Source: Pyrus communis (taxonomy: Eukaryota; Streptophyta; Magnoliopsida; Rosales; Rosaceae). Taken from it: 64,000 bases of DNA. The stretch covers positions 11,710,827 to 11,774,826 of the forward strand of contig NC_084805.1 in the NCBI RefSeq assembly GCF_963583255.1, in the 5' to 3' direction. The notes under the pieces are model-generated. The model did no database searches. It was not told the origin of the DNA and saw only the letters and a program-made list of their open reading frames with translations. How positions within the stretch are numbered: the first letter of the stretch is position 1; each line of letters starts with the position of its first letter. The position numbers were made by a program, and so were the translations under genes. Of this stretch, positions 17,360-40,340 are shown one piece after another.

Positions 17360-18379
17360 CGGCTTTTTAGCCAAAATTGTCCTTGAGATTTGCATAACAT
17401 TTCACTTTGGTCCCTAAGATTGAAAATCAATAGAAATGGTCCCTAAGATTGTCCACCACCCATTATTTTGGTTTTTCCGTTAAAAACTCCGTTAAGTGTC
17501 TCGGAGCTTTTAGCTGGAAGTTTGGGCAATTTTCAAAGCTGCATAACTCAATCATTTCTTAACCAAATTCAACCCATAATATATCAAAATGAAGATAGGA
17601 AAGTGTAGAACAAGATTATACCTATTTGGAGGCCTAATGGTTGCCAGAGATGGCTGAAAAATAGCCTGAAAGGTGACTGGTCCGCATGAAAACTGGAAAA
17701 CTCACCAGAAACTGGGTAAACTTTAAACGTTCATAACTTCTTCAATACTCAACAAAATCAAGTGATTCAAAAACGAAAATCATACTTCTTGATGAGAAAA
17801 AAAGATTGGTATCTTTCTCAATGGCTAACTCACTATGGTTTGGGCGAAAAATGGCTCGAAAATGGCTGTCTTGGTCTCGAGTTAGCCACTGTTGAGCTGT
17901 TGTCTGACCAAACCAAGGCGAATTAGCCATCGAGAAAGGTACTCTTTGTCTTGTCGAGAAGTATGATTTGTGTTTTTGAATCACTCAATTTTGTTGAGTA
18001 TTGAAGAAGTTTGAACAAGTTTACCCAGTTTTCGGCGAGTTTTCCAGTTTTCCTGCAAACCAGTCACCTTTCAGGCTATTTTCTGGCCATCTCCGGCAAC
18101 CATTAGTCTTCCAAATAGGTATAATCTTTTTTTACACTTTCTTATCTTCATTTTGATATATTATGGGTTGAATTTGGTTAAGAAACGATTGAGCTACGAA
18201 GCTTTGAAAATTGCCTAAACTTTCGGCAAAGAGTTCAGAGACACTTAACGGAGTTTTTAATGGAATAACCAAAATAATGAATGGTGGATAATCTCAGGGA
18301 CCATTTCTATTGATTTTCAATCTCAGGGACCAAAGTAATGTATTATGCAAATCTTAGGGACCATTTTGGTTAAAAAGCC
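17360..18379. mobile_element. Fold-back Mutator-like element with ~430-bp arms
   Basis: Left arm (about 17361-17790) and right arm (about 17930-18379) are inverted copies. The left starts GGCTTTTTAGCCAAAATTG and the right, read on the other strand, starts GGCTTTTTAACCAAAATGG. Homology continues through the repeated GGTCCCTAAGATT motifs and the paired segments near 17570 and 18180. It is flanked by 9-bp duplications TAGTATTGT (17351-17359) and TAGTACTGT (18380-18388) with one mismatch, the target size of Mutator-like transposons. No transposase is present, so it is non-autonomous. Confidence 0.7.
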
Positions 18380-19262: not shown

Positions 19263-21286
19263 TGATAAGTCACATTTTGCATGCATCTATATCTCGCTTA
19301 TTTGGCGTCTTTGTGATGTTTTGGATTAAACTAGTTGCGTTTTACATTGTTTTGTGTTAGTATGCAGCCAAGTGTGTAATAAGATCAATTGGAAGGCAAA
19401 TGAAGGAATGTGGTGCAATTCGACCACATTGGATGGTTCTAAACAGAAAGTGGTGCAATTCGACCACATTGGGTGTTTCTAAACAAGGCAAAAACATGCA
19501 TTCACATGCATGTCACAACCTTGGCCGTGTGTTCCCATATCATCCCATCATTTGATGCAATTCTTGCACCAAATCAGATTCCTCACAATCCCATTTCCAT
19601 CACTTAATTCATTTCAGCCATTTTGACACCAACAAACACAAACATCCATTCCGTGCACTCCATTACATTTCTACACATCACCTTTGCATTTCCATCTCTT
19701 TCATGTCCATTCCGTGCACTTCCATACCCAATTCCAGATTATTCTAACAGTTTCAGATTGTCCACTCCCTTGTGGCAGACTTTGCACATGTATCTTGGAT
19801 TAAATATCCATATACCTGCAGATTATGTCCATTCCTTGCATCCTTTATTCCAGAAATTCACTCATCCCTTTATCCATGCCGTGTGCCCATTTCACATTTC
19901 CAGAATTTGTACAAACAATTCACTTTTGGCAGATTCCACTCACTTGTTGCAGCAAAGACACATGCATTTTGATTAAACAAAACACATACTTGCAGATCTT
20001 GTCCATGCCATGCTTCCACTACCTCAGAAACCCATCATCCCATCACTTATGCACTGCCATCTGAGTTAAACAAATGGTAGATCCAATCTGATTGTCTCTC
20101 CATCATTAACCTTATTCAAAAATTCACCAAGGGACTCACTCACTCTCCATCTCTCTCGGATTTTCATTCCATTACACACATACATTCTCTCCATTTTACC
20201 ATTGCATTCTACATTCTTTTCCTTTCACAGAAACTGTCCATATTCTCTCCCTTTCCCATCCGCAAGTCTTATTCATCATCCAGTCCATTACACACCCAAA
20301 AACCTCTCCCATTTCACTCCATTCTCTGTCCAATTTCTGTCCAAGGGCAGAAACCACCCAACCAAGCCACTCTACCTTCATCCGCACCACATTTTGGAGA
20401 AGCAACACCAAGGAACTCTTCAAGGACTTCAACATCAGTTTTGCTTCAAGGGTTTCTCCTTCTTAATCTTATGTTCACTCATGTTATTTACTTTGATGTT
20501 AAACCTTTGTAAACATGAAGTATAACTAATCCTCCTCTAGGGATTCGATGTAACCTTGCAAAGTTTGCCATGTAATTAAGTTAGAATGCTCATTTTGTCC
20601 ATCTATTTCTTGTTTCATTTTCTGTTTTAATGGTGACTTTGTGTGTTGATTTTAATGTTTGATCATCATTTGAATTAATCACAAAGTTGTGTAGCCAAGA
20701 TTAGAACACACATCATGTATAATCTTGGTAGATATGTGAATGAATGAAGGGAGTGTTTAGCACACATCCTGCCGAGTTAACCCCTTTGGTTTTATGAAAG
20801 TTTCTTGTACATTACATAATCTTGATTATGAACCAAAGTTGCACATCACAATTAGGTTCATGATTAGAGACATTTGATCAAATCCACACATCATATGGTT
20901 GATCATATCCAAGTGAAACAAACTCAAGGAATAGGTAGATGAATGAGTACAAGCTAACTTGACAAACATGGACTTAGTTAAGCAATGGTGAAAACGAATC
21001 CCTAGCTTCATTTCCATTGATACTATCCTATTACATTAGTTGTTGATTCATTTACTTGTGTTTACTTCATTTTCTCATGCTTTCAAGTTACAACAACAAA
21101 TCTGTCTATTTAGACTAGTTTGATTCATTTCCAAATCTGCCTAGTTTGTTTAGTTTGATTCATTTTATAGAGTTCTTGCAAACAAGTAGTTACATAGGTC
21201 CAATTAGTCCCTGTGGATTCGACACCCTTACTTATGCCATTATACTAAATATATTCTAGCATTAAGAAGGGAATATTACATCAACA
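19263..21286 (+). repeat. Composite A 5' LTR (2024 bp)
   Basis: It starts TGATAAGTCACATTTTGC and ends ACATCAACA. It has the same length as the copy at 48138-50161, and only about three substitutions were noticed (near 20130, 20144 and 20995). ORFs within it are fortuitous and reappear in the second copy. The near-identity indicates a recent insertion. Confidence 0.92.
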
Positions 21287-21578: not shown

Positions 21579-22280
21579 TCACAAAGGTTGTTTACGTGAA
21601 GCCCCACTACGAGGCGTCGAAGCAGAAGGCTTTGAAGCAGAAGGCTTTGAAGCAGAAGGAATCGGAGCGGAAGGCATCGAAGCGGAAGGCATCGGAGCGG
21701 GAGGCATCGGAGCGGGAGGCATCGGAGCTAAAGCATTCCAGGCCTCAATACTTGGCCAAGCGCTGGATGAGCCAGGAAAAAGGTGCCTCTGGAGGAAAGA
21801 CGAAAACCTTTGACGGTCACTGTGAATCTGACCTTCAGACTCTTGCAGCTCATCAAGCTTCCTCTTCATGCCCGTCGAATAGTTGTTGGCAAGCACGTGC
21901 AAACTTCTATTCTTGTACTTAAGCTGCTGGATCTCCTGCTTGAGACTTTCCACCTCTGCCATCAATGATTCCACATGACGGGAGCGGGCAAGCAGGCGTT
22001 GGCCCATGTTGGACACAGAACTCGCACACTGAACACTAAGTGCGAGGGACTCTTGAACGGCCAACTCATCGGACCGTCCTGACAGCAGCCTACTATCTTT
22101 TGGAGTGAGGAGGTTCCTAGCTACTATTGTAGCTGTTGTGGCGTCCTGCATCACGGAGTCTTCACCTGTGAGAGGACCGTTAGAAGATAAGAAAGAAGGG
22201 CGCCATACGTTACCTTGACGCGGCGCGCCCGTATCACTGCTAAGGCTCAATTCCAAGCTAAGGTTCGATGAATTTGCCAT
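21579..22280 (-). CDS. Antisense coiled-coil ORF (aORF), copy a
   Basis: An intact 233-codon ORF runs opposite to the surrounding element. It starts MANSSNLSLELSLSSD, includes VWRPSFLSSNGPLTGEDSV, then a coiled-coil (residues roughly 120-165: ESLMAEVESLKQEIQQLKYK, then MKRKLDELQESEGQI). It ends in a Pro/Ala/Ser-rich tail encoded by a 15-bp minisatellite (about 21615-21735). Additional antisense ORFs between pol and the 3' LTR are known in several plant Ty3/Gypsy lineages such as Retand and Grande. The function is unknown. A second copy with near-identical core but a shorter tail lies at 30055-30687. Both staying open suggests recent origin or selection. Confidence 0.6.
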   Translation of the reverse strand: MANSSNLSLELSLSSDTGAPRQGNVWRPSFLSSNGPLTGEDSVMQDATTATIVARNLLTPKDSRLLSGRSDELAVQESLALSVQCASSVSNMGQRLLARSRHVESLMAEVESLKQEIQQLKYKNRSLHVLANNYSTGMKRKLDELQESEGQIHSDRQRFSSFLQRHLFPGSSSAWPSIEAWNALAPMPPAPMPPAPMPSASMPSAPIPSASKPSASKPSASTPRSGASRKQPL

Positions 22281-22371
22281 TTTTCAAAAGTGTTCAAAGA
22301 GAAGGGATGGAGTTAAATTTCAAAGGCCCGGAGTCGATTTTCAAGAATGGGAAATCTTCAGAGTGTGTTTG

Positions 22372-23376
22372 TGTAGACATCGAAATTTCGGTGAAATGAA
22401 TGTTAACCAATAATTAAAATTTCAACGCTTACGTGTCACATAAATTTTACATGTAGCGTGTGACTCAACGAAAAATCGAAATAAATTGGAAAGGTCATCA
22501 AATAGGACACGTGTCAATATCTGGCAGAAATGATTTATTTCATCTGATTATTTAAATCCAAAAATCAAGTTTTGGAATTCTATAAATAGGAGGCCAAGGC
22601 ATTCATTTAAGAAGGGAGGAAAGAAAGGAAGAAAGAGAGAAAGAAAGGAAGAAAGAAAGAAAGAAAGGAAGAAAGAAAGAAAGAAGGGAATTTACATCAC
22701 ACCAAAACCTTGAAGCCTTGAAACTCTAAAGCTCTCAAGCAAATCCCGAAGGATCAAGAAAACACTCTTCGTTCTTCGTCAAACCCTCATTCAAGGTCAA
22801 GCCCCAACGGCCCTTGAAGAACTTCCGCCGACTCAAGATCAAGCCCCGACGGCCCCTTGAAGAAAGTGTTCATCATCCGTTCGTCCTAAGATCAAGCCCC
22901 AACGGCCCTTTGGATCAACAACCTCAACAAATCCACACATCCAATCAGTCTTCAAGATTAGGCCCAAAAGCCCTTGAAGATCCGCTCATCCATCAACCCT
23001 CAAGATCAAGCCCCGACGGCCTCTTGAAGAAATCCATACACTCAGTCTTCAAGATTAGGCCCAAAAGCCCTTGAAGATCCGCTCATCCATCAACCCTCAA
23101 GATCAAGCTCCGACGGCCCCCTTGAAGAAATCCATACACCCAGTATTCAAGATCAAGCTCAAAAGCCCTCGAAGATCCGTTCATCAACTGTTCATCCCTA
23201 GATCAAGCCCCGACGGCCCTTTGGATCAACAGCTCATCCACAAACCTACACCCTACGAAGATAGAATCAGAGGATCAAATTACAAAGAGATTGTAACCCC
23301 AAAATCATTAAACACAAAAATATATTTTGTACGCGTATTCTTGTTTCTTGTTTTCAGGAACTTTTTCGTGTTTACA
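22372..23376 (+). repeat. Compound element 5' LTR (1005 bp)
   Basis: It starts TGTAGACATCGAAATTTCGG and ends TTTTTCGTGTTTACA. It contains a (GAAA)-rich run (about 22612-22690) and imperfect repeats of GATCAAGCCCCGACGGCCC (about 22795-23245). Its first 958 bp appear identical to 32535-33492 and to the reverse of 34001-34958. Confidence 0.9.
22581..22588 (+). promoter_or_regulatory. LTR TATA box
   Basis: TATAAATAGG lies about 210 bases into the LTR, just before a purine-rich stretch. It is the best candidate for the retroelement promoter. The same motif occurs at 32744 in the second LTR. Confidence 0.7.
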
Positions 23377-23380
23377 AATT

Positions 23381-23398
23381 TGGCACGCCCAGTGGGAC
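23381..23398 (+). other. Primer-binding site of compound element
   Basis: TGGCACGCCCAGTGGGAC follows the LTR end by four bases and begins with the expected TGG. I could not assign the tRNA with confidence; an Arg tRNA is one possibility. The inverted copy at 33934-33951 reads TGGCACGCCCGGTGGGAT. Confidence 0.7.
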
Positions 23399-23448
23399 AA
23401 TCTCTACCTCTCATCTCTGTCTCCGTTCAAGATATTCAAGCACAGTCC

Positions 23449-26166
23449 ATGGCTTCAAACAAAGAACAAGTCATGACTATCGGCACTACCTCCATTGAAA
23501 GACAGCTGGTTCAGATGAAGGAAACAATTGCAAGGCTGATAAAGACTGCAGAGGAGAAAAACTTGCAAACCGCCGGACTCATCAACCGTCTGGAGGCACA
23601 GCATGGCGTCAAAGTGAAACCAAGCTCTCTTCCAACTAAGAGGACCGAAGAAGGCTTCAACCCAAATGCCTACGAACTCATGTCAAAGGCTAGGCATGAC
23701 TTTGCTTCCTCTTCAAATCTTGGAAAGAAGGTTTCAAACACCGTCAACGACAAAGATCGCGACCTCACCGAGACTCAAAAGAAGTTGAAAGAGCATGATT
23801 ATGGAGTTGACAACAACAAGGCTGAACTTGGCTTCACACCAAATGCACCCGTGAAGATTTCAAGCAAAGTGAAGAAAGCTAGCGCTCAACACATCAGCGT
23901 GAGCATTGAACAAAACCAAGAAGAGCCTAAACCCTCCCCTCGGATGTCGGTCTTCAATAGGATGAGCCATTCAAGCTCCAGAACTTCAGTGCTTAATCGC
24001 ATTGGTGGTCAAGACCGAACCTCTGTCTTCAAGAGGCTTAACGCGCCGACATCCCAAAGCTCTGTTTTTGAAAGGTTGTTAAAGCCTAAGAAACAAAGCA
24101 ACACAGCTATCTCTCCTCTGCAACGATCAGCTTCAGAAATATTTGAAGATAATGGTAAGCCTTTTGGAAAGAGGAAGACAACCCCAAAGGGAGAAAAGCT
24201 CGATGGGTTAGGAGAAAAAGACGACGCTCGAAGCTTGATTCCTTCAAGGATGGAGCGCCAAGCAATCCTAGAGGTTGACACAAAAGGACCACTGAAGGTA
24301 AGGAGGCGCATCATCGTCCACACTGGCAAATCTTCATGCCAACAAACTCAAGAGAACGGCACTGAAGAGGAGATCCAAGATGTTTTCTACATCACGGTTC
24401 AAGAAGGTAAAGAAGACGAAAGCCCGAAGAAATACTCAGAGTCCCTACTCTTCGACCCTGATCCAAGCGGCAGTACAACCATGCAAGTCATGACCACTGG
24501 AGCAACTTCAATCGAGGAGCAGCTAGCTCAGATGAATGAAGTAATCGCAAAGCTCACACGGACTGTGGAAGAGAAGGACTTGCAGATTGCCGCACTTGTC
24601 AACCAACTAGATGCGCTGCCCGACGTGAAAGTCGACCCAAATATTGGCCTATTAAAGAAAGAAGACGACGAAGAAGAGGAGCCACCAGTGGAGAAAGTTG
24701 AAGAGAAGCCGAAGCTAGACCAAACAATGACATCCATGGGATCTCTCTCTATCCAGCAGCTACAGGAGATGATTGCAAGCACTATCAAGACACAGTACGA
24801 AGGAAGCTCGCACGACTCCGTACTGTACTCAAAGCCTTACTCCAAGAAGATTGATGCTTTGAAGATGCCAAGGGGTTATCAACCCCCAAAATTCATGCAG
24901 TTCGATGGAAAAGGCAACCCGAAGCAACATGTCGCCCATTTCATTGAAACTTGCAACAATGCTGGGACAGAGGGAGACTACCTCGTCAAACAGTTCGTGC
25001 GTTCGCTGAAGAGTAACGCTTTTGACTGGTACACCGACCTCGAACCCGAGTCTATCAACAGTTGGGACCAGCTAGAAAGGGAATTCCTCAACCGTTTCTA
25101 CAGCACTCGTCGTACTGTAAGCATGCTAGAGCTGACCAGTACGAAACAGTGGAGAGATGAACCTGTCATCGACTACATAAATAGATGGCGTTCATTAAGC
25201 CTGGATTGCAAAGATCGGCTTTCTGAAACCTCCGCCATCGAGATGTGCGTTCAAGGCATGCAGTGGGGACTACACTACATCCTTCAAGGCATCAAACCAC
25301 GAACATTTGAGGAGTTAGCCACCCGCGCCCATGATATGGAGTTAAGCATCACCCGTCATGGGAAGAAAGAACAGATCACCGACTACAAGAATGACAAAGT
25401 TTTGGGGCCCAAGGTGGATAAGGCTGCGTGGAAACCCACCAAGGAAGCAATGACGGTCAACACAACTCCAGTCAAAACCCATACACGAGGCAAGGCGATT
25501 CAAACCGAAGCTTTTCGTGATCAAGAGATACGTAGACGCACTTTGAAGGAGCTTGAGGAGAAGACTTATCCATTCCCCGACTCTGACGTGGTTGCCATGT
25601 TAGATGACTTGCTTGACAAAAAGGTGATCGACCTACCTGAGTGCAAACGGCCGGAAGAGATGAACCGTACTGACAGTCCAAGGTATTGTAAATTCCACCG
25701 CTTCATTGGTCATCCGACGGAAAAGTGCTTTGTGCTAAAAGATCTCATCATGAAGTTGGCTCAGAAAGGGATCATCGAGCTAGATCTTAATGATGTGGTG
25801 AAATCAAACTACACCTCCGTCACTTCTGGCTCTTTGAACTCAAAATCTTCACCTCAACCGCTGGGGGCATGCTCCAAAACCATGTCAGTCAAGTCAAGTG
25901 AAGTTGAAGGATGGACTTATGTCACTCCAAAGAAAATGCACAAGAAACATAGGTTTCCTCCACAAGTTCACCAAACGGAAAGGGGGCAAATCAGCTACCG
26001 TCAACCTTCAAAGCTACATGAAAATGTTGAGGATGACGAAATTATGACACAAAGATCGTCTGTTGCCATTACGATGCGCGATTTCTTCCCAAAAGACTTC
26101 TTCAATCACTCAGTCAAGACTCCTTGCTATGAAGATCGCAAGGAATGCCTCTCTAAGATCGTTTGA
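23449..26166 (+). CDS. Gag polyprotein, no pol
   Basis: The structural gag of the compound element, 905 codons from the ATG at 23449 ([15 protein letters not shown]). The N-terminus carries a coiled-coil module (residues about 7-60, [20 protein letters not shown]) that recurs near residues 345-400 ([20 protein letters not shown]), so it was duplicated internally. Between them lie Ser/Arg-rich short repeats ([17 protein letters not shown]). The retrotransposon gag domain spans about residues 480-640 ([35 protein letters not shown]). A zinc-binding-like motif [14 protein letters not shown] is near residue 747. The frame is open upstream through the primer site to 23071 within the LTR, but 23449 is preferred because it follows the primer site and matches the inverted copy. 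No protease or RT follows. Confidence 0.85.
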
Positions 26167-26187
26167 CAAATTCAAAAAAAAAAAAAG

Positions 26188-26415
26188 CTCCTCGTTCGCA
26201 CGAGCCTAAAAGGCGACAACAAACGCTCCTTGCCTGCATGAGCTGAAAATGCAAACGGCACCAAGACGCTCCTCGTTCGCACGAGCCTAAAAGGCGACAA
26301 CCAAAGCTCCTTGTCCGCACGAGCATAAAAGGCGACACCAAAAGCTCATTGTCTGCATGAGCTGAAACTGCAAACGGCACCAAACGCTCCTGGCCCGCAA
26401 GAGCATAAACTGTGT
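26188..26415 (+). repeat. Imperfect ~40-bp tandem repeats after gag
   Basis: About six units built around GCTCCTCGTTCGCACGAGC and AAAGGCGACA follow the gag stop. Alternate units carry TGCATGAGCTGAAAATGC and AAACGGCACC. Each unit contains a short palindrome (GCTC...GAGC), so the RNA could form serial hairpins. No coding role is evident. Confidence 0.75.
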
Positions 26416-26857
26416 ACGGCAAAATCATCATCAAAACCATCACTCATTTGAACTACGTCATGACTTGATCCCTCCTCAACCAAGGGTACGTAGGCAACTT
26501 GAAACTTCAAAACTTCAAGTACAGTCACATCATCAAAAAAAAAATTTGGAGAATAAAGAGCAAATTCAGGAATGCAAACACTTTATTTCTTTAAAGGAAT
26601 GATTTGGTTACAAAGCCGTATTACAAGGGTGAGCATCACACCAACGTCACCACCGAGGGAAAACCGTGACCAAAAGGCACTACACAACGAAATCCCGCTA
26701 CAGTCTTCTGCACAGCACCACACGGTAAGAAGTGACGTACTGCAACAAGTGTCGGCAAAGAACACGGTTGTACCCACGTCCTGCTCACTCCGTCACCAAT
26801 TGTGAACATGGGTAATCCGTCAAAACATCAAAGAAATCCATGAATGCAGTGAGCACC

Positions 26858-26860
<3 letters not shown>

Positions 26861-26914
<54 letters not shown>

Positions 26915-27117
26915 AAAAGGGTTTTATTAAATGTTTGACTATTGAAAGTCAATTTCATTACATTAAAAAATAATAATAAAAAATAAATAAGGGTTTTTAT
27001 TAAAGACTTACAAATAAAAGTCAATTTTATTACAAGGAAAAAAAAATATTACTTTGTATTAAAAAAAAAATAAAAAAATAAAAAAATAAAAAAAGAAGAT
27101 AAAATAAAATAAAAAAT
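26861..27117. repeat. Poly(A) run and A-rich low-complexity stretch
   Basis: A run of about 50 A (26861-26912) is followed by AT-rich sequence full of AAATAAAA-type motifs. It borders the left side of the captured-gene block; a similar run borders the right side. Confidence 0.85.
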
Positions 27118-27248
27118 GTGTATATGTGTTATGTATGTGTCCCTCGCATGAGGCCCATCCGCACACAAGCCCCAGCTAAGGAACACGACCCAATAGCTAG
27201 GCCCACATGTTGCACACCAAGTTCCAAATCCCTGCTCCCCTCCTGTAA

Positions 27249-27436
27249 TGGCGAAAAAGAGAAAGCTCAGCTCTATCGACCCCTGGCGACCTTTCCCTGC
27301 CCCTGCTCAAAAGCAAGACAATTCCAAATCGAAGAGCTATGTGGTAGAGGAGAATGACGGCGACATGACGGATACTGAAGCTGCTCAAGTCCATGTCGAA
27401 AAATGAGATAATTGAATCTGATATCGAGCTCTCGGA
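27249..27436 (+). pseudogene. Captured fragment resembling Hsp70-interacting protein (HIP/FAM10)
   Basis: One frame reads SKSKSYVVEENDGDMTDTEA followed by an in-frame stop. A neighbouring frame then reads EIIESDIELSD. The order (VVEE acidic stretch, then E-I-V/I-E-S-D-I/V-E-L) is that of the acidic linker of plant HIP/FAM10 co-chaperones. The piece is short, shifted in frame once and lacks TPR repeats, so the assignment is moderate. It lies at the left of the captured block in plus orientation. Confidence 0.45.
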
Positions 27437-27639
27437 TCTCCAATGACTTCCAAGGACACGCTGAAATCGAGGGAGGTCTCCACCATGATCAAAATGGGCT
27501 TCATCTTCAATCGAACTTTCTCTTTCTTGCCGTCAAGATTTCTCTCCAAGCACTCATTCCCCTGCTCGCTGATCCTCTACTTCAACAACTCCATCTTCTT
27601 CGTCTCTGCTGTTGACGTCGACAAGCTTCTCCAGCGCGG
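27437..27639 (+). other. Captured block, unidentified segment
   Basis: GC-richer coding-like sequence (SKDTLKSREVSTMIKMGF and following) is joined between the HIP-like and EXO70 fragments. I do not recognise the source. It differs in composition from the AT-rich retroelement around it, which suggests it is also captured. Confidence 0.3.
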
Positions 27640-27985
27640 CGATTCGTCGAACACTAGCAGCTACCGATTCGATATCTGGCATCAAGCCCATCAGAGCATC
27701 GTGCAAGTCGAGAATCTTGAAGAGCTTCTCGGGCGACCTCCGGCTGATGCTGATGGCCTCGGCGAAGTTGAAGAGCTAAATCGCGGGGCCCTTGACTGTC
27801 TCCATAAAGCAAGCGTCGTCAATGGTGGTGCCGATGCCATTGAAGATTTGCTCGCAGAGCTTCTTCTCGGAGGCGAAGACGGTCCTCACGCAGGCCTTGG
27901 CGGCGCGTATCCACCGTCGGATCTTGGTTTCCAGCTGCTCCCACTGCAGCCTCTGAACGTCTCCGATGCTCAGCTTCTCAATCCC
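27640..27985 (-). pseudogene. Captured EXO70 exocyst fragment, antisense, broken
   Basis: On the minus strand the sequence reads IEKLSIGDVQRLQWEQLETK, IRRWIRAAKACVRTVFASEK, KLCEQIFNGIGTTIDDACFM and ETVKGPAI. A TAG follows at 27776-27778, then the reading continues as [20 protein letters not shown] and [18 protein letters not shown]. This is the central region of plant EXO70, a subunit of the exocyst tether for secretory vesicles. The stop fits a single CAG-to-TAG change. The fragment lacks both ends of EXO70 and is inverted relative to gag. Confidence 0.85.
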
Positions 27986-28080
27986 CAGCGAGGACCTCGA
28001 CTCCTTAATCTCCCTCACCACCGACGAGGACCTCGACAACATGATCGACGAGTACGACCGCACGGCCAATCACAGCGACG
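27966..28080 (+). pseudogene. Captured PB1-domain fragment
   Basis: The plus strand reads SEDLDSLISLTTDEDLDNMI then DEYDR, the acidic OPCA-type segment of plant PB1 domains (D/E-D-L-x-x-L-I-x-V-x-x-x-E-D-L). It abuts the EXO70 fragment in the opposite orientation at about 27975-27990. Only the C-terminal half of a PB1 domain is present. Confidence 0.75.
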
Positions 28081-28107
28081 TCCTCTGTCCTAAAACCCTA
28101 ACCCCCT

Positions 28108-28563
28108 TTGATTCGAAGCAAATCGTCGTCGCTGCCAAATTCTTCAATAAAGAACAACGAAGATCTCCAATCGCAATCGACGAAGAAAACCAGAGAGTTG
28201 CCGAATCTGTCAGAGTGTCATTGTTGCCACCTGAGAGTCGACATTGCCAACGCCAGCGCCAAGAGCAAGCTTCAGATCCTCTACAGCGAGTGGCGCGTCG
28301 TCCTCCTCTGCAAGAAATGCCTCACGCGCGTCGAGTCCTCGGAGCTCTGCTCCTACTGCTTCGCCGCCACCTCGCCGTCGCAGGAGGACTCCTTCACTTG
28401 CTGCCAGTGTAATCGGAGAGTGCACAGGCGTTGCGATTCCGAGTATCGAGGGATTGCGCTGTTGTCTCAGAATTCTTGCTTGGCGGTGGAGGCTGAGGTT
28501 TGTGCCGATTGCTGGCTGCCGGAGTCGCTTGCCGCGGTGCTCCAATTGCAGGCTCCGCACTAG
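28108..28563 (+). pseudogene. Captured Cys-rich zinc-binding protein fragment
   Basis: The 151-codon ORF reads RSKSSSLPNSSIKNNEDLQS, then ECHCCHLRVDI, LYSEWRVVLLCKKCLTRVES, SELCSYCF and FTCCQCNRRVHRRC. Four CxxC pairs and the C-x2-C...H-x3-C spacing suggest a RING/PHD-like zinc fold of an uncharacterised plant protein. The beginning may be the authentic start of the source gene. The end is cut at about 28555 where it joins the next fragment. It could be translated as a small chimeric protein, but there is no evidence that it is. Confidence 0.6.
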
Positions 28564-28621
28564 ATCAGATAGAACAAGTCGTGGTACCAGATCGAACGGT
28601 GGTGCAGGCGGCGGATTTTCA

Positions 28622-28975
28622 CCGGGAACTGTTCCTGGGAAGATCTTGTCCTTCGCTGGCTGTCACATGGACGTCGTCACTGCTAATCCCGATGACTGGG
28701 AATTTGATCCATTCTCATTGAGCATTGATGGAGATAAACTTCGTGGCCGTGGAACTACTGATTGCTTGGGTCATGTTGCACTTGTAACGGAGCTCATGAG
28801 AAGGCTGGCAGAGACCAAGCCAAAATTGAAGACAACTGTGGTTGCAGTCTTTATAGCAAATGAAGAGAATTTTGCCATTTCAGGAGTTGGTGTGGATGCG
28901 CTCGTAAAGGATGGGCTACTCAGTAGGCTAAAGGATTGTCCTCTGTTTTGGATTGACACAGCATCATCAACAACC
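28622..28975 (+). pseudogene. Captured acetylornithine deacetylase (M20) fragment
   Basis: The sequence reads VPGKILSFAGCHMDVVTANP, DDWEFDPFSLSIDGDKLRGR, GTTDCLGHVALVTELMRRL, VVAVFIANEENFAISGVGVD and GPLFWIDTA-like CPLFWIDTA. It covers the HxD metal ligand pair (His codon at 28664), the following Asp in GTTDCLGH, and the Glu-Glu pair of the M20 active site. The family makes ornithine from N-acetylornithine in plastids. About 118 codons are present with no intron; both ends are missing. After DTA the sequence diverges and stops at 29017. Confidence 0.88.
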
Positions 28976-29043
28976 GCATCGTGCACTCTCATCTCGACCG
29001 ACAACAATAGGGAGTAGCAAACTAATGTCCTCGGAGTCTTCAC

Positions 29044-29280
29044 CACCCTGCATTAAAAAGCAATGGTAGAGTCCTCAGCTTCGGAGTGGATGCACCTATT
29101 TGTGATTCCATGGCTTCTTCTCTAAATCCTGCAGATAAAAAGGTTCCGAATGGTACTCGAAATGGTTTACATAAAAGCGAAGAACCGAATGTCAATGGCT
29201 TCTCTTCGCAAATTCCTTGTCTTCCCGGTGTTCCCTGGCCTTATCCATGGAATGCAGCAATTCCTCCACTTCAGGCTTGA
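29044..29280 (+). pseudogene. Captured cycling DOF factor (CDF) C-terminal fragment
   Basis: The frame reads HPALKSNGRVLSFGVDAP, ICDSMASSLNPADKK and SSQIPCLPGVPWPYPWNAA, then stops. The GVPWPYPWN block and the preceding LxFGxDAPxCxSMAS block are conserved C-terminal motifs of plant CDF-type Dof transcription factors that act in photoperiodic flowering. The Dof zinc finger is absent. The fragment starts in the middle of the frame after an unrelated junction near 29040. Confidence 0.85.
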
Positions 29281-29620
29281 CGCCTTGCACTACCTCGAGC
29301 TCGTCATTCTGGCCACCATGATCAAAATCAACGAAGAGCTTCATTGACCGCTGTCAAACGACTAGCCGGTCTTCAAGCTCGACGCTTTGCACTGCCTCAA
29401 GATCTGGCTGCTTCTGCACCTTCGCCATGGCTGCTGCCTTTGAATGTGATCAACAAAAACAAAGTTTGTCAACTCACATCTGCTTGCCTCTGCTGCTGCC
29501 TTTGAATGTGATTGACAAAATCAAAGTTTGTCAACTCACACCCAAAGATCTCCTCCGTCTTCTCTCGGACTCGGCCTGGGTTTTCACCCACGAACTCAGC
29601 CTTGCAGATGGCCATATAAA
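29281..29620. other. Captured block, unidentified right end with 66-bp duplication
   Basis: The minus strand has coding-like pieces (MAICKAEFVGENPGRVREK and MAKVQKQPDLEAVQS) that I do not recognise. A segment around TGCTGCCTTTGAATGTGAT and CAAAGTTTGTCAACTCAC occurs twice, at about 29431-29481 and 29494-29542. The GC content remains higher than in the retroelement around it, so this is probably more captured sequence. Confidence 0.35.
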
Positions 29621-29623
29621 GAG

Positions 29624-29654
<31 letters not shown>

Positions 29655-29776
29655 GCAATGATGATGCTGGGAAGCATCTTTCAAAAGAATAATAAAAAAA
29701 TTTAAAAGAAAAAAATATATATATATAATAAAAAGAAAGAAAAAAAAAAAACAACAGGTGCTTCTGGCACCATCTG

Positions 29777-29816
<40 letters not shown>

Positions 29817-29995
29817 GGTGGATCAGTGCCACCGAAAGCAAAGAAAAGTAAAAAAAAAAAAAATAAATAAATAAAATAAAATAAAATAAAATAAAAAAGG
29901 AATGATGATGGACGGTGATGTATATGTTTTATCTGTATTTAGCACAATACACTGAATACAATAAAGCATTTCCATTAATCTTCAAGAAATTACAA

Positions 29996-30044
<49 letters not shown>
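29621..30044. repeat. Poly(A), (TA)n and A-rich low-complexity stretch
   Basis: Runs of A occur at about 29620-29651 and 30002-30044, with (TA)n near 29779-29807 and AAATAAAAT repeats between. It closes the captured block on the right. Confidence 0.85.
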
Positions 30045-30046
<2 letters not shown>

Positions 30047-30054
30047 TGGAGCTT

Positions 30055-30687
30055 TCACAAAGGATGTTCACGTGAAGCCCCATTACTTGGCAAAACTCTA
30101 GAAGCGGAAGGCATCGAAGCGGGAGGCGTTGAAGCTAGAGCATTCCAGGCCTCAATACTTGGCCAAACGCTGGAAGACCCAGGAAAAAGGTGCCTCTGGA
30201 GGAAAGACGAAAACCTTTGACGGTCACTTTGAATCCGACCTTCAGACTCTTGCAGCTCATCAAGCTTCCTCTTCATGCCCGTCGAATAGTTGTTTGCAAG
30301 TACGTGCAAACTTCTATTCTCATACTTCAGCTGCTTGATCTCTTGCTTGAGACTTTCCACCTCTGCCATCAACGATTCAACCTGACGGGAGCGAGCAAGT
30401 AGGCGTTGGCCCATGTTGGACACAGAGCCTGCACACTGAACGCTGAGAGCGAGGGACTCTTGAACGGCCAACTCATCGGACCGTCCTGAAAGCAGTCGAC
30501 TATCTTCAGGAGTGAGGAGGTTCCTAGCTACTATCGTAGCTGTTGTTGCGTCCTTCATCACAGAGTCTTCACCTGTAAGAGGACCGTTAGAAGATAAAAA
30601 AGAAGGGCGCCATACATTACCTTGACGGGGCACAACCGGATCGCTGCTGAGACTCAAATCTAAGCAAAGGTTCGATGAGTTAGTCAT
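30055..30687 (-). CDS. Antisense coiled-coil ORF (aORF), copy b
   Basis: An intact ORF of 210 aa from MTNSSNLCLDLSLSSD; a Met further upstream at 30756 is in frame but not conserved in copy a. The core (VWRPSFLSSNGPLTGEDSV, ESLMAEVESLKQEIKQLKYE, MKRKLDELQESEGRI) matches copy a at 21579-22280 closely. The Pro/Ala/Ser tail is much shorter, so the minisatellite expanded or contracted between copies. It lies opposite to gag between the captured block and the 3' LTR, where antisense ORFs are known in some plant Ty3/Gypsy elements. The function is unknown. Confidence 0.6.
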   Translation of the reverse strand: MTNSSNLCLDLSLSSDPVVPRQGNVWRPSFLSSNGPLTGEDSVMKDATTATIVARNLLTPEDSRLLSGRSDELAVQESLALSVQCAGSVSNMGQRLLARSRQVESLMAEVESLKQEIKQLKYENRSLHVLANNYSTGMKRKLDELQESEGRIQSDRQRFSSFLQRHLFPGSSSVWPSIEAWNALASTPPASMPSASRVLPSNGASREHPL

Positions 30688-30756
30688 TTTTTCAAAGGTG
30701 TTCAAAGAGAAGGGATATAAAAAAAAAATTTCAAAGGGTCGGAGACAATTTTTCAA

Positions 30757-32518
30757 GAATGGGCAATCTTCAGAGTGTGAATGTTGGGGTGATCAATACC
30801 GCTATAAAAAGCCAAGGCGACACGACCACCGATTCAAAAAATCCGGATTTTCCTGCGTGAAGTTTGGCGACGCGTTCGCTGCTTTTCAGAAAACGCGTTC
30901 AACTTTGTCAAAAGATATCTGACAAAGTCGAGAACACGTGGAGGCCATCATCGCAACTACACGTCTTTAGCCGACAAGCGCAAAGTTCGGCGACGCTTTC
31001 TCTGCTTTTCAGAAAACGCGTGCAACTTTGTCAAAAGTGGCGCTCGTTCAGAAATCGAAGAGGCGTCGTTCAGAAATCGAAGAGGCGTCGTTCAGATATC
31101 GAAGAGACGTTTGTCGACAAAGGTAAAAGAACAAGACCACCACTTGCTATTAAGAAATCCCTATATGTGTCGACCTTCGTCTCTTATGGCAAGGCAGACT
31201 TGAAGAAAATGCCCAACTTTTCCTCACCTCTGAAGGCGCACTCCCAGCAAAGCCTCTCGAAATACTCAATTCTTCTTCTTCCCTTGAGAAAACCTATTCA
31301 ACCTTTGAAGATACCAGATGCCTGGAGTACAGATGACCCAGGAGGAAACAATAGATTGAAGCATGTGTTGATTCATTCACCGCTTCTTCAAAAGCAAAGG
31401 TATCTCATATCATCAAGGGCGAAAGCATAGGTATCTCATATCATGCTTTTTCCCTATCTTTTCCTTTGCCCTTGTTCTCACCTGCCAAGACAAGGACAGA
31501 GGAAGCAATATGTCGGAACCTCCACTCAAACCAGTTGCCACCAAGGAGTGAAGCACCATTTAAATGCAAAGGTTGCATTCAACTCCTGCATCGGAGGACA
31601 AATACTACAAGAGAAGATGCTAAACCTGCATAAGGAAATACCACTTCTGCAAAGGGGAGCAAGTAAGGCAAGTGAAAATGATACATCGAAGCATGTGGAG
31701 ACAAGCACAACAAATATATGTGTTGATTCATTCGCTGCTTCTTCGAAAGTAAAGGTATCTCATATCATGCTTTTTCCCTGTCTTTTCCTTTGTCCTTGTT
31801 CTTACTCGCATGGCAAAGTGAAAGAAGCAATCAGCCGGCACTTGGAGTCAGTCTTCCGATCTGGAACCGACTACCTGGAACCTATTCCTGATTGCTTACC
31901 TAGTATTGCTCTCGAGTAGTCATCTTCAACGGTTGATACACTGCCAGAGAAGGGACAAGGAAACTTCAATCTTTCCGATTCGTATTCAATACGATTTGGA
32001 AAGATTGAACAAAGAAACAGGTCAGCACCTCCACTTCGTACTTGCCTGCCATATCCTGAAACCGCTCGTAGACCTTCGGGGGGAGACCAAAAGAATCCTG
32101 CTGCCCAGTTCAAGAGTAGCACAAAGGAAAATCAACGATGGGAGGAAACCAGAAAATCTTCCAGTCGAACTCAAGATCAAGCCTCAATGGCCCTTGAAGA
32201 AATCACAAGTCCGATTCAAAATCAAGTGTTCACCACCCTTGAATCAAATTCAACTCCTGATAAAAGGAGTAAGTTCAAACCTTCGGAGGAGACCAAAAGA
32301 ATCTTCCAGCCCAGTTCAAGATTAAGCTTGTGGAAAATCAACGATAGGAGGAAACCAGAAAATCTTCCAGTCGAACTCAAGATCAAGCCTCAATGGCCCT
32401 TGAAGAAATTTCCAGCTCAATTCAAGATCAAGCCTCGACGGCCCTTGGGTTGACATCTACATTAAGGGACTTCAAAACGCATCTTCTACACGTGACAAGC
32501 ACATGTCTACGACGCGCC
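30757..32518 (+). other. Non-coding 3' region of compound element with internal duplications
   Basis: It contains paired repeats. CTGCTTTTCAGAAAACGCGT recurs at about 30878 and 31001. A segment with GATTCATTC..CTTCTTC.AAAG and TCATATCATGCTTTTTCCCT recurs about 350 bases apart (31370-31480 and 31722-31800). From 32160 repeats of GATCAAGCCTCAATGGCCC continue the motif found inside the LTR. Short ORFs here are not recognised. The same region appears in block C0 at 34964-36121. Confidence 0.6.
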
Positions 32519-32534
32519 TTGAAGTGGGGGCATT
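32519..32534 (+). other. Polypurine tract of compound element
   Basis: TTGAAGTGGGGGCATT directly precedes the second LTR. It has the form and position of a plus-strand priming tract. Confidence 0.75.
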
Positions 32535-33492
32535 TGTAGACATCGAAATTTCGGTGAAATGAATGTTAACCAATAATTAAAATTTCAACGCTTACGTGTC
32601 ACATAAATTTTACATGTAGCGTGTGACTCAACGAAAAATCGAAATAAATTGGAAAGGTCATCAAATAGGACACGTGTCAATATCTGGCAGAAATGATTTA
32701 TTTCATCTGATTATTTAAATCCAAAAATCAAGTTTTGGAATTCTATAAATAGGAGGCCAAGGCATTCATTTAAGAAGGGAGGAAAGAAAGGAAGAAAGAG
32801 AGAAAGAAAGGAAGAAAGAAAGAAAGAAAGGAAGAAAGAAAGAAAGAAGGGAATTTACATCACACCAAAACCTTGAAGCCTTGAAACTCTAAAGCTCTCA
32901 AGCAAATCCCGAAGGATCAAGAAAACACTCTTCGTTCTTCGTCAAACCCTCATTCAAGGTCAAGCCCCAACGGCCCTTGAAGAACTTCCGCCGACTCAAG
33001 ATCAAGCCCCGACGGCCCCTTGAAGAAAGTGTTCATCATCCGTTCGTCCTAAGATCAAGCCCCAACGGCCCTTTGGATCAACAACCTCAACAAATCCACA
33101 CATCCAATCAGTCTTCAAGATTAGGCCCAAAAGCCCTTGAAGATCCGCTCATCCATCAACCCTCAAGATCAAGCCCCGACGGCCTCTTGAAGAAATCCAT
33201 ACACTCAGTCTTCAAGATTAGGCCCAAAAGCCCTTGAAGATCCGCTCATCCATCAACCCTCAAGATCAAGCTCCGACGGCCCCCTTGAAGAAATCCATAC
33301 ACCCAGTATTCAAGATCAAGCTCAAAAGCCCTCGAAGATCCGTTCATCAACTGTTCATCCCTAGATCAAGCCCCGACGGCCCTTTGGATCAACAGCTCAT
33401 CCACAAACCTACACCCTACGAAGATAGAATCAGAGGATCAAATTACAAAGAGATTGTAACCCCAAAATCATTAAACACAAAAATATATTTTG
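32535..33492 (+). repeat. Second LTR of compound element, truncated
   Basis: It is identical as far as I can see to the first 958 bp of the 5' LTR, then breaks at ATATATTTTG. The final 47 bp of the LTR are missing. The next bases (GTGTGAAGCC) belong to gag in reverse. TTTG is shared by both sides of the junction. Confidence 0.88.
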
Positions 33493-33883
33493 GTGTGAAG
33501 CCAAGTTCAGCCTTGTTGTTGTCAACTCCATAATCATGCTCTTTCAACTTCTTTTGAGTCTCGGTGAGGTCGCGATCTTTGTCGTTGACGGTGTTTGAAA
33601 CCTTCTTTCCAAGATTTGAAGAGGAAGCAAAGTCATGCCTAGCCTTTGACATGAGTTCGTAGGCATTTGGGTTGAAGCCTTCTTCGGTCCTCTTAGTTGG
33701 AAGAGAGCTTGGTTTCACTTTGACGCCATGCTGTGCCTCCAGACGGTTGATGAGTCCGGCGGTTTGCAAGTTTTTCTCCTCTGCAGTCTTTATCAGCCTT
33801 GCAATTGTTTCCTTCATCTGAACCAGCTGTCTTTCAATGGAGGTAGTGCCGATAGTCATGACTTGTTCTTTGTTTGAAGCCAT
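33493..33883 (-). pseudogene. Inverted 5' fragment of gag
   Basis: On the minus strand this is the first ~130 codons of gag, from [15 protein letters not shown] to KAELGFTP, with the same protein sequence as 23449 onward. It is truncated where it joins the second LTR. It shows that a second copy of the element's 5' end was joined in opposite orientation. Confidence 0.88.
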
Positions 33884-33933
33884 GGACTGTGCTTGAATAT
33901 CTTGAACGGAGACAGAGATGAGAGGTAGAGATT

Positions 33934-33951
33934 ATCCCACCGGGCGTGCCA
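33934..33951 (-). other. Inverted primer-binding site
   Basis: TGGCACGCCCGGTGGGAT on the minus strand differs at two positions from the site at 23381-23398. Confidence 0.7.
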
Positions 33952-33955
33952 AATT

Positions 33956-34958
33956 TGTAAACACGGAAAATTCCTGAAACAAGAGACAAGAATACGCGTA
34001 CAAAATATATTTTTGTGTTTAATGATTTTGGGGTTACAATCTCTTTGTAATTTGATCCTCTGATTCTATCTTCGTAGGGTGTAGGTTTGTGGATGAGCTG
34101 TTGATCCAAAGGGCCGTCGGGGCTTGATCTAGGGATGAACAGTTGATGAACGGATCTTCGAGGGCTTTTGAGCTTGATCTTGAATACTGGGTGTATGGAT
34201 TTCTTCAAGGGGGCCGTCGGAGCTTGATCTTGAGGGTTGATGGATGAGCGGATCTTCAAGGGCTTTTGGGCCTAATCTTGAAGACTGAGTGTATGGATTT
34301 CTTCAAGAGGCCGTCGGGGCTTGATCTTGAGGGTTGATGGATGAGCGGATCTTCAAGGGCTTTTGGGCCTAATCTTGAAGACTGATTGGATGTGTGGATT
34401 TGTTGAGGTTGTTGATCCAAAGGGCCGTTGGGGCTTGATCTTAGGACGAACGGATGATGAACACTTTCTTCAAGGGGCCGTCGGGGCTTGATCTTGAGTC
34501 GGCGGAAGTTCTTCAAGGGCCGTTGGGGCTTGACCTTGAATGAGGGTTTGACGAAGAACGAAGAGTGTTTTCTTGATCCTTCGGGATTTGCTTGAGAGCT
34601 TTAGAGTTTCAAGGCTTCAAGGTTTTGGTGTGATGTAAATTCCCTTCTTTCTTTCTTTCTTCCTTTCTTTCTTTCTTTCTTCCTTTCTTTCTCTCTTTCT
34701 TCCTTTCTTTCCTCCCTTCTTAAATGAATGCCTTGGCCTCCTATTTATAGAATTCCAAAACTTGATTTTTGGATTTAAATAATCAGATGAAATAAATCAT
34801 TTCTGCCAGATATTGACACGTGTCCTATTTGATGACCTTTCCAATTTATTTCGATTTTTCGTTGAGTCACACGCTACATGTAAAATTTATGTGACACGTA
34901 AGCGTTGAAATTTTAATTATTGGTTAACATTCATTTCACCGAAATTTCGATGTCTACA
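33956..34958 (-). repeat. Inverted full LTR forming the right end of the compound element
   Basis: On the minus strand it starts TGTAGACATCGAAATTTCGG at 34958 and ends GTGTTTACA at 33956, 1003 bp. Its first 958 bp mirror 32535-33492. Differences from the 5' LTR cluster in the last ~45 bp. The target copy GTTTG follows at 34959. Confidence 0.88.
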
Positions 34959-34963
34959 GTTTG

Positions 34964-37943: not shown

Positions 37944-40340
37944 TGATAGGAGCATATTCATGCGACTTAAATGGCTTGGTCTCGTGCATTTACGTTATGT
38001 TTCTTTAGTTATTTTAGTCCTTTAAGCTATTTTCGTGTGTTTGTAGGTCCAAAGGGCTAAAGGAGCAAAAAGATGCATTTTGGAGACTTTTGGAGCACTT
38101 TTGGGCTAAGGATGGATAACTTATGCTTGGCGCCAAAGTGTTGGACGAAATTGAAGACCAAAGTGTTGGAACCTTGTTCCCTTTAGTTTTAGGACATTTA
38201 AACCTTTCCTAATCTCATTCATCCACCACACATTCTAGCCCATTCCTACACATGTGCCATACATCTCCACAATCCCATTCATCAACACATGCATTTACAT
38301 GCTTTCACATGCATTTTTCACATGCATTCCCTTGCACACTCCAACCATTGTCGTCCACATTCACATCAACACATGCACCACAGAAAACTCCTTTTGTGCC
38401 GTGCCTAATTCCATGCATTCCATCCATATTTCAGCCATGCACATTTAATCATTTCACTCCACTTAATGCCATGAGTTTCCATCAGAATTTTCAACCTAAT
38501 TCACATGCATTTCCAACCTAATCACTCACCCACACAATCTGAAATCATTCAAACAATCACCATCATTGCCGTGCATTCCATTATCTTTCTCCACTTCATC
38601 TTTGCAAAAATCCACATGCATCTCAATTAAATAAACCCCATGCTTGCACATTTCCCTTTTGCCATGCACCCATTATTCCAGAAAACCATTCATCCCATCA
38701 TTCCATGTGATTCCAGCTCATCTTTGTCTATGCCGTGCACTTTAATACCCTTTCCAGATTGTCATTTCAGCCTTTGCAGCCAATACACATGCATGATTCA
38801 ACCAAAATAGCCAAATGCATGCATACTTCCCTAGTGCTGTGAGTCCACTACCTCAGAAACCCATCAATTCCAGCTCATTTATGCACTTCCATCTCACATG
38901 TGCAGATCCAAGATCCAATCTGAATGTTGGCAGCCACATTCCTTCCTATAAAACTAGGCACACTTCACACATCAACATGGACAATTCATTCACAACAGAA
39001 ATTTGTCCCTTGGGGCCGTGCCCTTCACAAAGTCCATCCATTCCATTCATACACTTCATCCATTGCAGAAATGTAGACCATAAACCCCCCTTTGTGCCGT
39101 GACTCTCCCTTACAATCCAAACATCATCCTTCCATTTCCATAATTCCCCAATCCATTCAACACACCAACAACATCCCTTAGACCTTGTGCTACGACGAAG
39201 AGGAAGATAAGAGGGCCTAAACGTTCATACAATTCAAGTTTGAGTTGTTGGAATGTTTAGGTGTTTCTTTGATTCTACATCAGTTTTGCTTCAAGGGTTC
39301 TTTCTTCTTATTAATTCTATGTTCATTCATGTTTTTATGTTAAATCCTTTGCAAACATGAATTGTAACTAATCCTCCTCTATGGATTTGATGTAGCCTTG
39401 CAAAGTTTGCCATGTAGTTAATTCGGAATTCTCATTTAATCTATCTATTTCTTGCTTCATTCTCCGATTTAATTGTGACTTAGTATGTTGATTTTAATGC
39501 TTGATCACCATTTGAATTAACCACAGGTTGTTTAGCCAAGATTAAAGCACACATCATGCATAATCTTGGTAGATATGTGAATGAATGAAGGGAATGTTTT
39601 GCAAACATCCTGCCGAGTGTTCCCTTTGGTTTTGTGAAAGTTTCTTGTGCACTACATAGTCTTGATTAGGAACCAAAGTTGCACATCACAATTAGGCTCA
39701 TAATTAGAGACATTTGATCAAATCCACACATCATATGGCTGATCATATCTAAGTGAAACAAACCCAAGAAATAAGTAGAGGGATGAGTATAATCTGACTT
39801 AACAAGCATGGACTTGGCTTAGCAATGGTAAAATCGAATCTCTAGCTTCATCTTCATTAGTACTATCTTATTTTATTAGTTGTTGATTCATTTCCTTATG
39901 CTTTAATTTACAATCTGTTTGTTTCCAAGTTTCTGTTTTTATTTCAAGTTTCATTCAAAACCAATCCCCCGTTTCTTTTAAAGTGTTAGATTAGTTAGAA
40001 ATACATTTAGTTTGTGTTTGTAAGTGTTTTGATTCATTTTGTTTCTCAAATTCGTCCAAAGTACTCAAGGTGCTCAAAACTGCCCAGAAAGTGATTTTAA
40101 GGCAGTTTTGAGTGTTTTGGTGCTGTTTTGAGTCTTTTGGTTTGTTTTAGTGTTTTAAAGTTTAGTTTTGCATTCTTTGAGTCTAGTATAGTGTTTCATA
40201 TTGTTAGTTTACGTTTTTGAGTCAAATTCAAGTGGTTAACAATCCCTCCTAATCCCCGGTCTAGAACGATCCCTACTTATACATATACTACAATTTGACG
40301 AAAAGAGGGTTTAATTTGTGTGCGGATAAATCTCGCATCA
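37944..40340 (+). repeat. Middle LTR (type B, 2397 bp)
   Basis: It starts TGATAGGAGCATATTCATGC and ends AAATCTCGCATCA. Its right half is clearly related to the outer LTRs (TCAGTTTTGCTTCAAGGG, CTTGCAAAGTTTGCCATGTA, AGATATGTGAATGAATGAAGG) but the left half (U3) is different. A polypurine tract abuts it on the left and a tRNA-Asp primer site follows five bases to the right, so both edges are genuine LTR-internal borders. No second copy of this LTR type is in the window. Confidence 0.85.

What the first reader, a model, noticed from the sequence alone, without database searches (positions are those of the whole stretch)
22372..34958. Retroelement integrated with two U3 ends (inverted terminal LTR) and a single TSD
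The insertion starts with the LTR edge TGTAGACATCG and ends with the same edge inverted. Perfect GTTTG copies flank it (22367-22371, 34959-34963), and removing it rejoins an otherwise continuous C0 sequence. Inside, the second LTR breaks at 33492 and fuses through a TTTG microhomology to an inverted gag-PBS-LTR segment. A normal cDNA has one U3 and one U5 end. This suggests a cDNA made by a strand switch onto an opposite-sense 5' segment, whose two U3 termini were both used by integrase. Template-switch complex LTR insertions are known in plants, but a U3/U3 product carrying one TSD pair is unusual.
Basis: partly seen in the sequence, partly recalled or inferred. Interest (0 to 1): 0.9.

Follow-up and report, generated by a model that had tools for sequence, protein, structure and literature searches.

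The report
Retrotransposon inserted by two left ends
A young retrotransposon copy in what looks like an apple- or pear-related genome ends in two "left" ends instead of a left and a right end, apparently because two DNA copies were fused tail to tail before the integrase pasted the product in.

Summary
A 12,587-bp insertion (22372-34958) starts and ends with the U3 edge of the same LTR. It has perfect 5-bp duplications (GTTTG), and a related sequence inside the element itself shows the site unoccupied, with one 5-mer. The 3' LTR is 47 bp short and joined through TTTG to an inverted gag-leader-PBS-LTR arm of 1,466 bp.
New here: the two U3-bearing arms are identical over 973 + 441 bp, and all six differences lie in the 54 bp between. 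Four are in the last 32 bp of U5 and two in the 18-nt primer-binding site, the stretch laid down when a tRNA primes a strong-stop DNA. So the inverted arm is not a plain copy of this element's own 5' end; two separately primed cDNA ends probably contributed.
Best reading: two cDNAs were joined by strand switch or microhomology end-joining, and integrase then used two U3 ends in one integration (0.68). The main rival is a later templated replacement of the 3' LTR tail, because both LTR termini end in TACA. The genome-wide search did not complete, so recurrence is untested. Novelty: a new variant of template-switch complex insertions.

The parts
22367..22371 (+). left target-site duplication GTTTG
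   Evidence: sequence; single copy at the paralogous site
22372..23376 (+). 5' LTR (TGTAGACATCG...TTTACA, 1005 bp)
   Evidence: the 3' limit is my assignment from TGTA...TACA and the following PBS
23381..23398 (+). primer-binding site TGGCACGCCCAGTGGGAC
   Evidence: sequence; assignment by position and TGG start, 18 nt assumed (inference)
23345..23398 (+). 54-bp patch holding all six differences between the two U3-bearing arms (counterpart 33934-33985)
   Evidence: clustering control
23449..26166 (+). gag ORF (open frame 23071-26166)
   Evidence: Retrotrans_gag 1.3e-13; Malus/Pyrus relatives
27443..29280 (+). patchwork with plant gene fragments where pol would be (PB1 piece, M20 deacetylase piece, others)
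   Evidence: no match to the RT-to-integrase part of relatives inside the element
30055..30756 (-). antisense ORF; adjoins the paralogue of the insertion site (30779-30783)
32521..32532 (+). polypurine-tract-like GAAGTGGGGGCA before the 3' LTR
   Evidence: assignment by position (inference)
32535..33492 (+). 3' LTR, truncated: lacks the last 47 bp of U5; identical to the 5' LTR over 958 bp
33480..33491 (+). AAAATATATTTT, the only perfect palindrome of 12 bp or more in the LTR, ending 1 nt before the break
33489..33492 (+). TTTG microhomology at the junction
   Evidence: null 1.8%
33493..33933 (-). inverted gag/leader segment, identical to 23399-23839
33934..33951 (-). inverted PBS, variant with two changes
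33956..34958 (-). inverted LTR, ending with its U3 edge at the host junction
34959..34963 (+). right target-site duplication GTTTG

Best explanation
A non-autonomous, gag-only Ty3/gypsy-type element was reverse-transcribed with enzymes supplied by another element. Within one particle or pre-integration complex, one nearly complete cDNA lost or never finished the last 47 bp of its downstream U5. It was joined through TTTG, tail to tail, to the U3-R-U5-PBS-gag end of a second, separately primed cDNA strand. The chimera had a U3 terminus at each end, and integrase inserted it in one concerted reaction with a 5-bp stagger. Shown: the anatomy, the TSD, the single-copy paralogous site, the identical LTRs, and differences limited to U5 tail plus PBS. 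Inferred: joining before integration, two primed ends, and use of two U3 ends by integrase. Undecided: strand switch during plus-strand synthesis (favoured, as a judgement) or end-joining of two cDNAs.
For: Matched 5-bp TSD, and flanks that rejoin without a gap on a paralogue holding one copy. The outer right edge is exactly the U3 terminus. The inverted arm contains U3 (TATA at 22581), which genomic RNA lacks at its 5' end, so the arm came from a cDNA (inference from the standard scheme). The LTR copies are identical outside the patch. The six differences fall within 54 bp, P about 5e-7 for uniform scatter, and stop at the last PBS base. Most of the inverted arm's variants also occur in relatives. 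4-bp microhomology, null 1.8%, next to the LTR's only 12-bp palindrome (noticed post hoc). Concerted integration with U3-only oligonucleotides is an assay used with RSV integrase (PMC10209032, passages). Recombination between co-packaged RNAs is documented for Onsen (PMC5668417, passages).
Against: No second copy of the junction and no orthologous empty site could be checked. The U3 and U5 termini share TACA, so the right end could be the original U5 end after a second switch. Outside the patch the two arms are identical, which also fits copying from the element itself followed by a local change. None of the four relatives compared carries all six inverted-arm variants (best, P0121, five of six), and none carries the forward arm's U5 indel states. 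The two single-base indels lie in or beside T runs and could be assembly or polishing errors. A review states that integration during infection needs integrase action on both U3 and U5 ends (PMC11054761, passages).
Confidence: 0.68

Rival explanations
1. Post-integration templated replacement: a normal insertion was later broken in its 3' LTR tail, and repair (microhomology-mediated replication or capture of a cDNA fragment) replaced about 43 bp of U5 with the inverted arm, rejoining at the TACA common to both LTR termini. The TSD would then be the ordinary one.
For: U3 end reversed (CGATGTCTACA) and U5 end (CGTGTTTACA) share TACA; both junctions then have 4 bp of microhomology. Needs no unusual integration.
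Against: Needs a second event after an insertion with no detectable LTR divergence (0 of 958), nested in a host element whose own LTRs differ at 3 of 2024 sites. The second switch must fall within 4 bp of the LTR edge, and the donor must end exactly at its U3 terminus. Copying this element's own 5' end does not explain the six differences.
Confidence: 0.2
2. Two independent insertions in opposite orientation, fused by deletion or recombination.
For: Most complex elements reported in plants are of recombinational origin (PMC1950507, whole text).
Against: Such products do not carry matching TSDs (same paper). Here the TSD matches, and the outer flanks are adjacent on the paralogue.
Confidence: 0.04
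3. Assembly artefact (fold-back chimera or mis-polished repeat).
For: Long perfect inverted repeats are an assembly hazard (general knowledge); two of the six differences are single-base indels in or beside T runs.
Against: An artefact would not be expected to place the U3 edge exactly next to a matched TSD followed by the proper host flank. Most of the inverted arm's variants also occur in other sequences.
Confidence: 0.08

Closest known systems
Template-switch complex LTR insertions (Sabot and Schulman 2007, PMC1950507, whole text)
   Same: Three near-identical LTRs, one TSD pair, explained by template switching between co-packaged RNAs and a single integration
   Different: Those are direct LTR-internal-LTR-internal-LTR arrays with a U3 and a U5 end; here the third LTR is inverted, the extra segment is only about 1.5 kb and both ends are U3
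Complex TRIM/Cassandra elements of pear (PMC4668562, passages)
   Same: Multi-LTR elements from the plant group suggested here, some with TSDs
   Different: LTR-internal-LTR-internal-LTR arrays of TRIM elements; the term 'inverted' does not occur in that paper's main text
Recombinant Onsen insertions (PMC5668417, passages)
   Same: New copies as mosaics of co-packaged RNAs, with many switch points in the LTR
   Different: No inverted arm or two-U3 structure in the passages seen
DIRS-1-type elements with inverted LTRs (PMC5633606, passages)
   Same: Inverted terminal LTRs
   Different: There the inverted LTRs are the normal architecture, with tyrosine recombinase and circular intermediates; here one rearranged copy of a direct-LTR element with a 5-bp TSD
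Natural inverted-repeat silencers such as maize Mu killer (recalled, not read)
   Same: Inverted duplicate of a transposon end beside a promoter could yield hairpin RNA
   Different: No transcript or small-RNA evidence here; different transposon class

Membership tests
Canonical LTR retrotransposon insertion | Two direct LTRs, U3 edge at one end and U5 edge at the other | tested here: not met
   both outer edges are U3
Canonical LTR retrotransposon insertion | PBS and PPT next to the LTRs, 5-bp TSD | tested here: met
   PBS and PPT assigned by position
Template-switch complex LTR insertion (PMC1950507) | Flanking TSD pair | tested here: met
Template-switch complex LTR insertion (PMC1950507) | Outer LTRs highly similar | tested here: met
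   outer LTRs identical except four sites in the U5 tail
Template-switch complex LTR insertion (PMC1950507) | Third LTR internal, two complete cores, all in one direction | tested here: not met
   third LTR inverted; one core plus a 441-bp gag/leader piece
Retand lineage (PMC11963269, passages) | Antisense ORF between pol and 3' LTR | tested here: inconclusive
   antisense ORF present before the 3' LTR, but no RT/integrase match in the element
Retand lineage (PMC11963269, passages) | TRP28 domain (PF04195) in the antisense ORF (97% of clusters in that paper) | tested here: not met
   PF04195 not among the matches listed at E up to 10 (HMMER filters drop most weak matches)
Retand lineage (PMC11963269, passages) | Placement by reverse-transcriptase phylogeny | not testable with these tools
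   no reverse-transcriptase match in the element
DIRS-like elements | Inverted LTRs as the normal architecture | tested here: not met
   direct LTR pair plus an added inverted LTR, with a 5-bp TSD
DIRS-like elements | Tyrosine recombinase gene | not tested
   no dedicated search was run

The most novel reading that the evidence does not exclude
Two-U3 integrations are a recurrent, overlooked outcome of retrotransposition: co-packaged cDNAs fuse tail to tail and integrase accepts any two U3 ends. Because the inverted LTR is a second promoter firing back into an antisense LTR, such copies are born as hairpin-RNA sources (about 718 bp of perfect stem here) that could silence their own family.
Probability: 0.2. 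Interest if true: 0.78.

Novelty: new variant of a known kind. Interest (0 to 1): 0.55.

Why it matters
If right, it is natural evidence that a plant retrotransposon integrase can complete an insertion with two U3 ends, and that two separately primed cDNAs can be joined before integration. LTR finders generally look for direct LTR pairs (recalled), and one cucumber survey removed its LTR pairs in opposite directions by hand (two instances, PMC4600303, passage), so the class may be under-counted. Each such copy would also be a ready-made inverted repeat with its own promoter, hence a possible trigger of family silencing.

Tried and rejected
Self-copy of the 5' end after integration: rejected in its simple form by the six clustered differences. 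Ageing after insertion as the source of the differences: rejected, since the rest of the arms and the LTR pair are identical. Two separate insertions fused: rejected by the TSD and the paralogous site. Inverted arm copied directly from genomic RNA: rejected because it contains U3 (inference from the TATA position). A foreign haplotype for the whole patch in one arm only: not supported. Of the four relatives compared, the three informative ones share the U5 indel states with the inverted arm, but three of four share the first PBS site with the forward arm, so each arm carries something unusual. Identifying the primer tRNA: left open. A tRNA-Arg 3' end was recalled as a possible fit, but no call tested it.

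Protein search of residues 1-150 of the read-through frame: 99 candidates, none at the threshold. A PBS pattern in viral contigs and megablast of the LTR in plasmids gave nothing, as expected for a plant. Paper searches for inverted-LTR or two-U3 insertions listed no report that I recognised as a two-U3 plant insertion with a TSD. I judged most entries by title and abstract start, opened only those cited here, and the library lacks most subscription journals.
Full report
WHAT IS THERE. The window is plant DNA. The gag part of the element (residues 560-960 of the open frame) has 309 relatives at the threshold, 120 of them listed. Of the ten best, nine are named Pyrus or Malus and one is unnamed, at 84-89% identity, so the source is probably an apple/pear relative. 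The insertion runs from 22372 to 34958. It begins with the LTR edge TGTAGACATCG, ends with the same edge inverted, and is flanked by GTTTG on both sides. I place the LTR at 22372-23376 (TGTA...TACA). A 4-bp spacer and a primer-binding site (23381-23398) follow, then a gag ORF (Retrotrans_gag 1.3e-13). Eight relatives, several with reverse-transcriptase and integrase domains, were compared with the window. Their RT-to-integrase parts match 43540-46347 and, weakly, 4772-4912 and 6692-6844, but nothing inside the element, so the element looks non-autonomous. A stretch that lies behind gag in some relatives matches 23614-24618, ahead of gag here. A polypurine-like tract precedes the second LTR at 32535. 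That LTR is identical to the first over 958 of 958 bp and stops at 33492, 47 bp short. After a TTTG microhomology comes an inverted arm of 1,466 bp: gag, leader, PBS, LTR.

IS THE TSD REAL. The finding asked for an empty site. Part of the answer is in the window itself: the insertion lies in sequence related to 30103-32358 of the element's own interior. With the flanks joined and one GTTTG kept, they align to that paralogue without a gap for about 50 bp around the site, and the paralogue holds one 5-mer, GAATG, at 30779-30783. This is a diverged paralogue, not the orthologue, but it shows that the two flanks were adjacent and that the 5 bp were duplicated. Random pairs of 5-mers in this window match in 0.15% of draws.

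The two arms that end in U3 differ at six places, all between 23345 and 23398. Four lie in the last 32 bp of U5 (two substitutions, two single-base indels). Two lie inside the PBS, the last one at its final base if the PBS is 18 nt. Nothing differs in the 973 bp before or in the 441 bp after. Uniform scatter would give so tight a cluster with probability about 5e-7 (0 of a million draws). The unit U5 tail plus PBS is what a tRNA-primed strong-stop DNA contributes: U5 from the RNA, and the plus-strand PBS copied from the tRNA itself (established reverse-transcription scheme). I therefore infer that the two U3 ends came from two separately primed products. The variants do not look like random errors only. 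Of the 120 listed gag relatives, a motif search found two that read through this region (P0005, P0104), and a second protein search gave two more (P0121, P0122). These four were compared with all 64 combinations of the two arms' variants. At the two U5 indels, three of four fit the inverted arm and one (P0005) is uninformative. At the first PBS site, three of four fit the forward arm (P0104, P0122, P0005) and one the inverted arm (P0121). At the first U5 site one fits the inverted arm (P0104), one the forward arm (P0121), and two are tied. The list of tied combinations for P0005 was cut at 12. No relative carries all six inverted-arm variants; the closest, P0121, fits five. So each arm has something uncommon. 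The sample is small, translated, and of unnamed source in three of four cases.

HOW IT MOST LIKELY AROSE. The inverted arm contains U3 (a TATA box at 22581, puts the start of R near 22612 by inference), which genomic RNA does not have at its 5' end. So the arm was copied from, or is, a cDNA that had already completed its 5' LTR. The simplest order has one abnormal step: during final plus-strand synthesis through the downstream U5, the growing strand left its template 47 bp before the end. It paired by TTTG with a co-packaged plus-strand DNA in gag and copied it to its U3 end. The break lies 1 nt past AAAATATATTTT, the only perfect palindrome of 12 bp or more in the LTR (the rest of the element has others). 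Microhomology end-joining of two cDNAs would give the same sequence. Four or more shared bases occur in 1.8% of random joins, which suits both. Integrase then joined two U3 ends. Concerted integration with gain-of-function or wild-type U3 oligonucleotides is used as an assay for RSV integrase (PMC10209032, passages), so the chemistry is not exotic; the substrate is. On the other side, a review says that integration during infection needs integrase action on both U3 and U5 ends (PMC11054761, passages).

THE SERIOUS RIVAL. The reversed U3 end (CGATGTCTACA) and the normal U5 end (CGTGTTTACA) share TACA. A normal insertion could therefore have lost about 43 bp of U5 and gained the inverted arm by two microhomology switches, keeping its ordinary right edge and TSD. 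Against this: the insertion has no LTR divergence. Its host is an LTR element (19263-50161, TSD GAGGG) whose LTRs differ at 3 of 2024 sites. The second switch must fall exactly at the LTR edge. I give this 0.2. If the host arrived first, as nesting suggests, the insertion is very young; a host transcript carrying the insert along seems unlikely at this length, but was not tested.

CONSEQUENCE. The 3' LTR and the inverted LTR form a perfect 958-bp inverted repeat with a 508-bp spacer. A transcript from the inverted promoter would pair R-U5 with the antisense 3' LTR over about 718 bp (start site estimated as TATA + 31). Part of it folds as one long hairpin (-925.8 kcal/mol over 1,294 nt, no shuffle control). 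Whether it is transcribed is unknown.

KNOWN KINDS. Sabot and Schulman (PMC1950507, whole text) described complex insertions with three LTRs and one TSD pair and explained them by template switching between co-packaged RNAs. Theirs are direct arrays with normal ends. Sanchez et al. (PMC5668417, passages) report that only 5 of 32 new Onsen insertions had a single parent; all but one of the recombinants came from two parents. The pear survey (PMC4668562, passages) counts 257 multi-LTR elements, and the word inverted does not occur in its main text. My paper searches (listings, with passages of the papers cited) showed no report that I recognised as a plant insertion with two U3 ends and a TSD; many subscription papers are not held. 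I file this as a new variant of template-switch complex insertions by likeness of mechanism, not as a member, because orientation and core number were tested and not met.

LIMITS. The genome search did not complete (23 tries), so recurrence, the donor copy and the orthologous empty site are open. One locus cannot show a class.

Noticed in passing
27170-29280: The element carries pieces of plant genes where pol would be: part of a PB1 domain (1.8e-5) and an M20/acetylornithine-deacetylase-like piece (5e-15). A Cys-rich, zinc-finger-like piece at 28108-28560 is by eye only (no Pfam or NCBIfam match); a stretch near 29040-29280 resembles a cycling DOF factor C-terminus (recalled, untested).
   Followed up: partly
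26861-26913, 29624-29651, 30002-30044: Long A runs (53, 28 and 43) inside the element; the last follows an AATAAAG-containing 3'-UTR-like stretch, as if a polyadenylated mRNA had been captured by template switching.
   Followed up: partly
23614-24618 and 24415-26130: In relatives P0043 and P0053 the stretch matching 23614-24618 lies behind the gag part; here it lies ahead of it, so the ORF seems rearranged.
   Followed up: no
19258-50166: Host LTR element: 2,024-bp LTRs (19263-21286, 48138-50161) with 3 mismatches, TSD GAGGG, a PBS-like TGGCGCCGTT, and flanks contiguous in a paralogue at 53214-53749.
   Followed up: partly
38774-39908: Third, older LTR-like copy (86% over 39273-39908) inside that host element, so the host may itself be a three-LTR complex.
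   Followed up: no
17361-18379: About 1 kb imperfect palindrome, 84% self-complementary, fold-back or MITE-like.
   Followed up: no
21579-22280 and 30055-30756, minus strand: Two related antisense ORFs (233 aa each) with only weak, sub-threshold matches to coiled-coil families; no TRP28 domain listed.
   Followed up: partly
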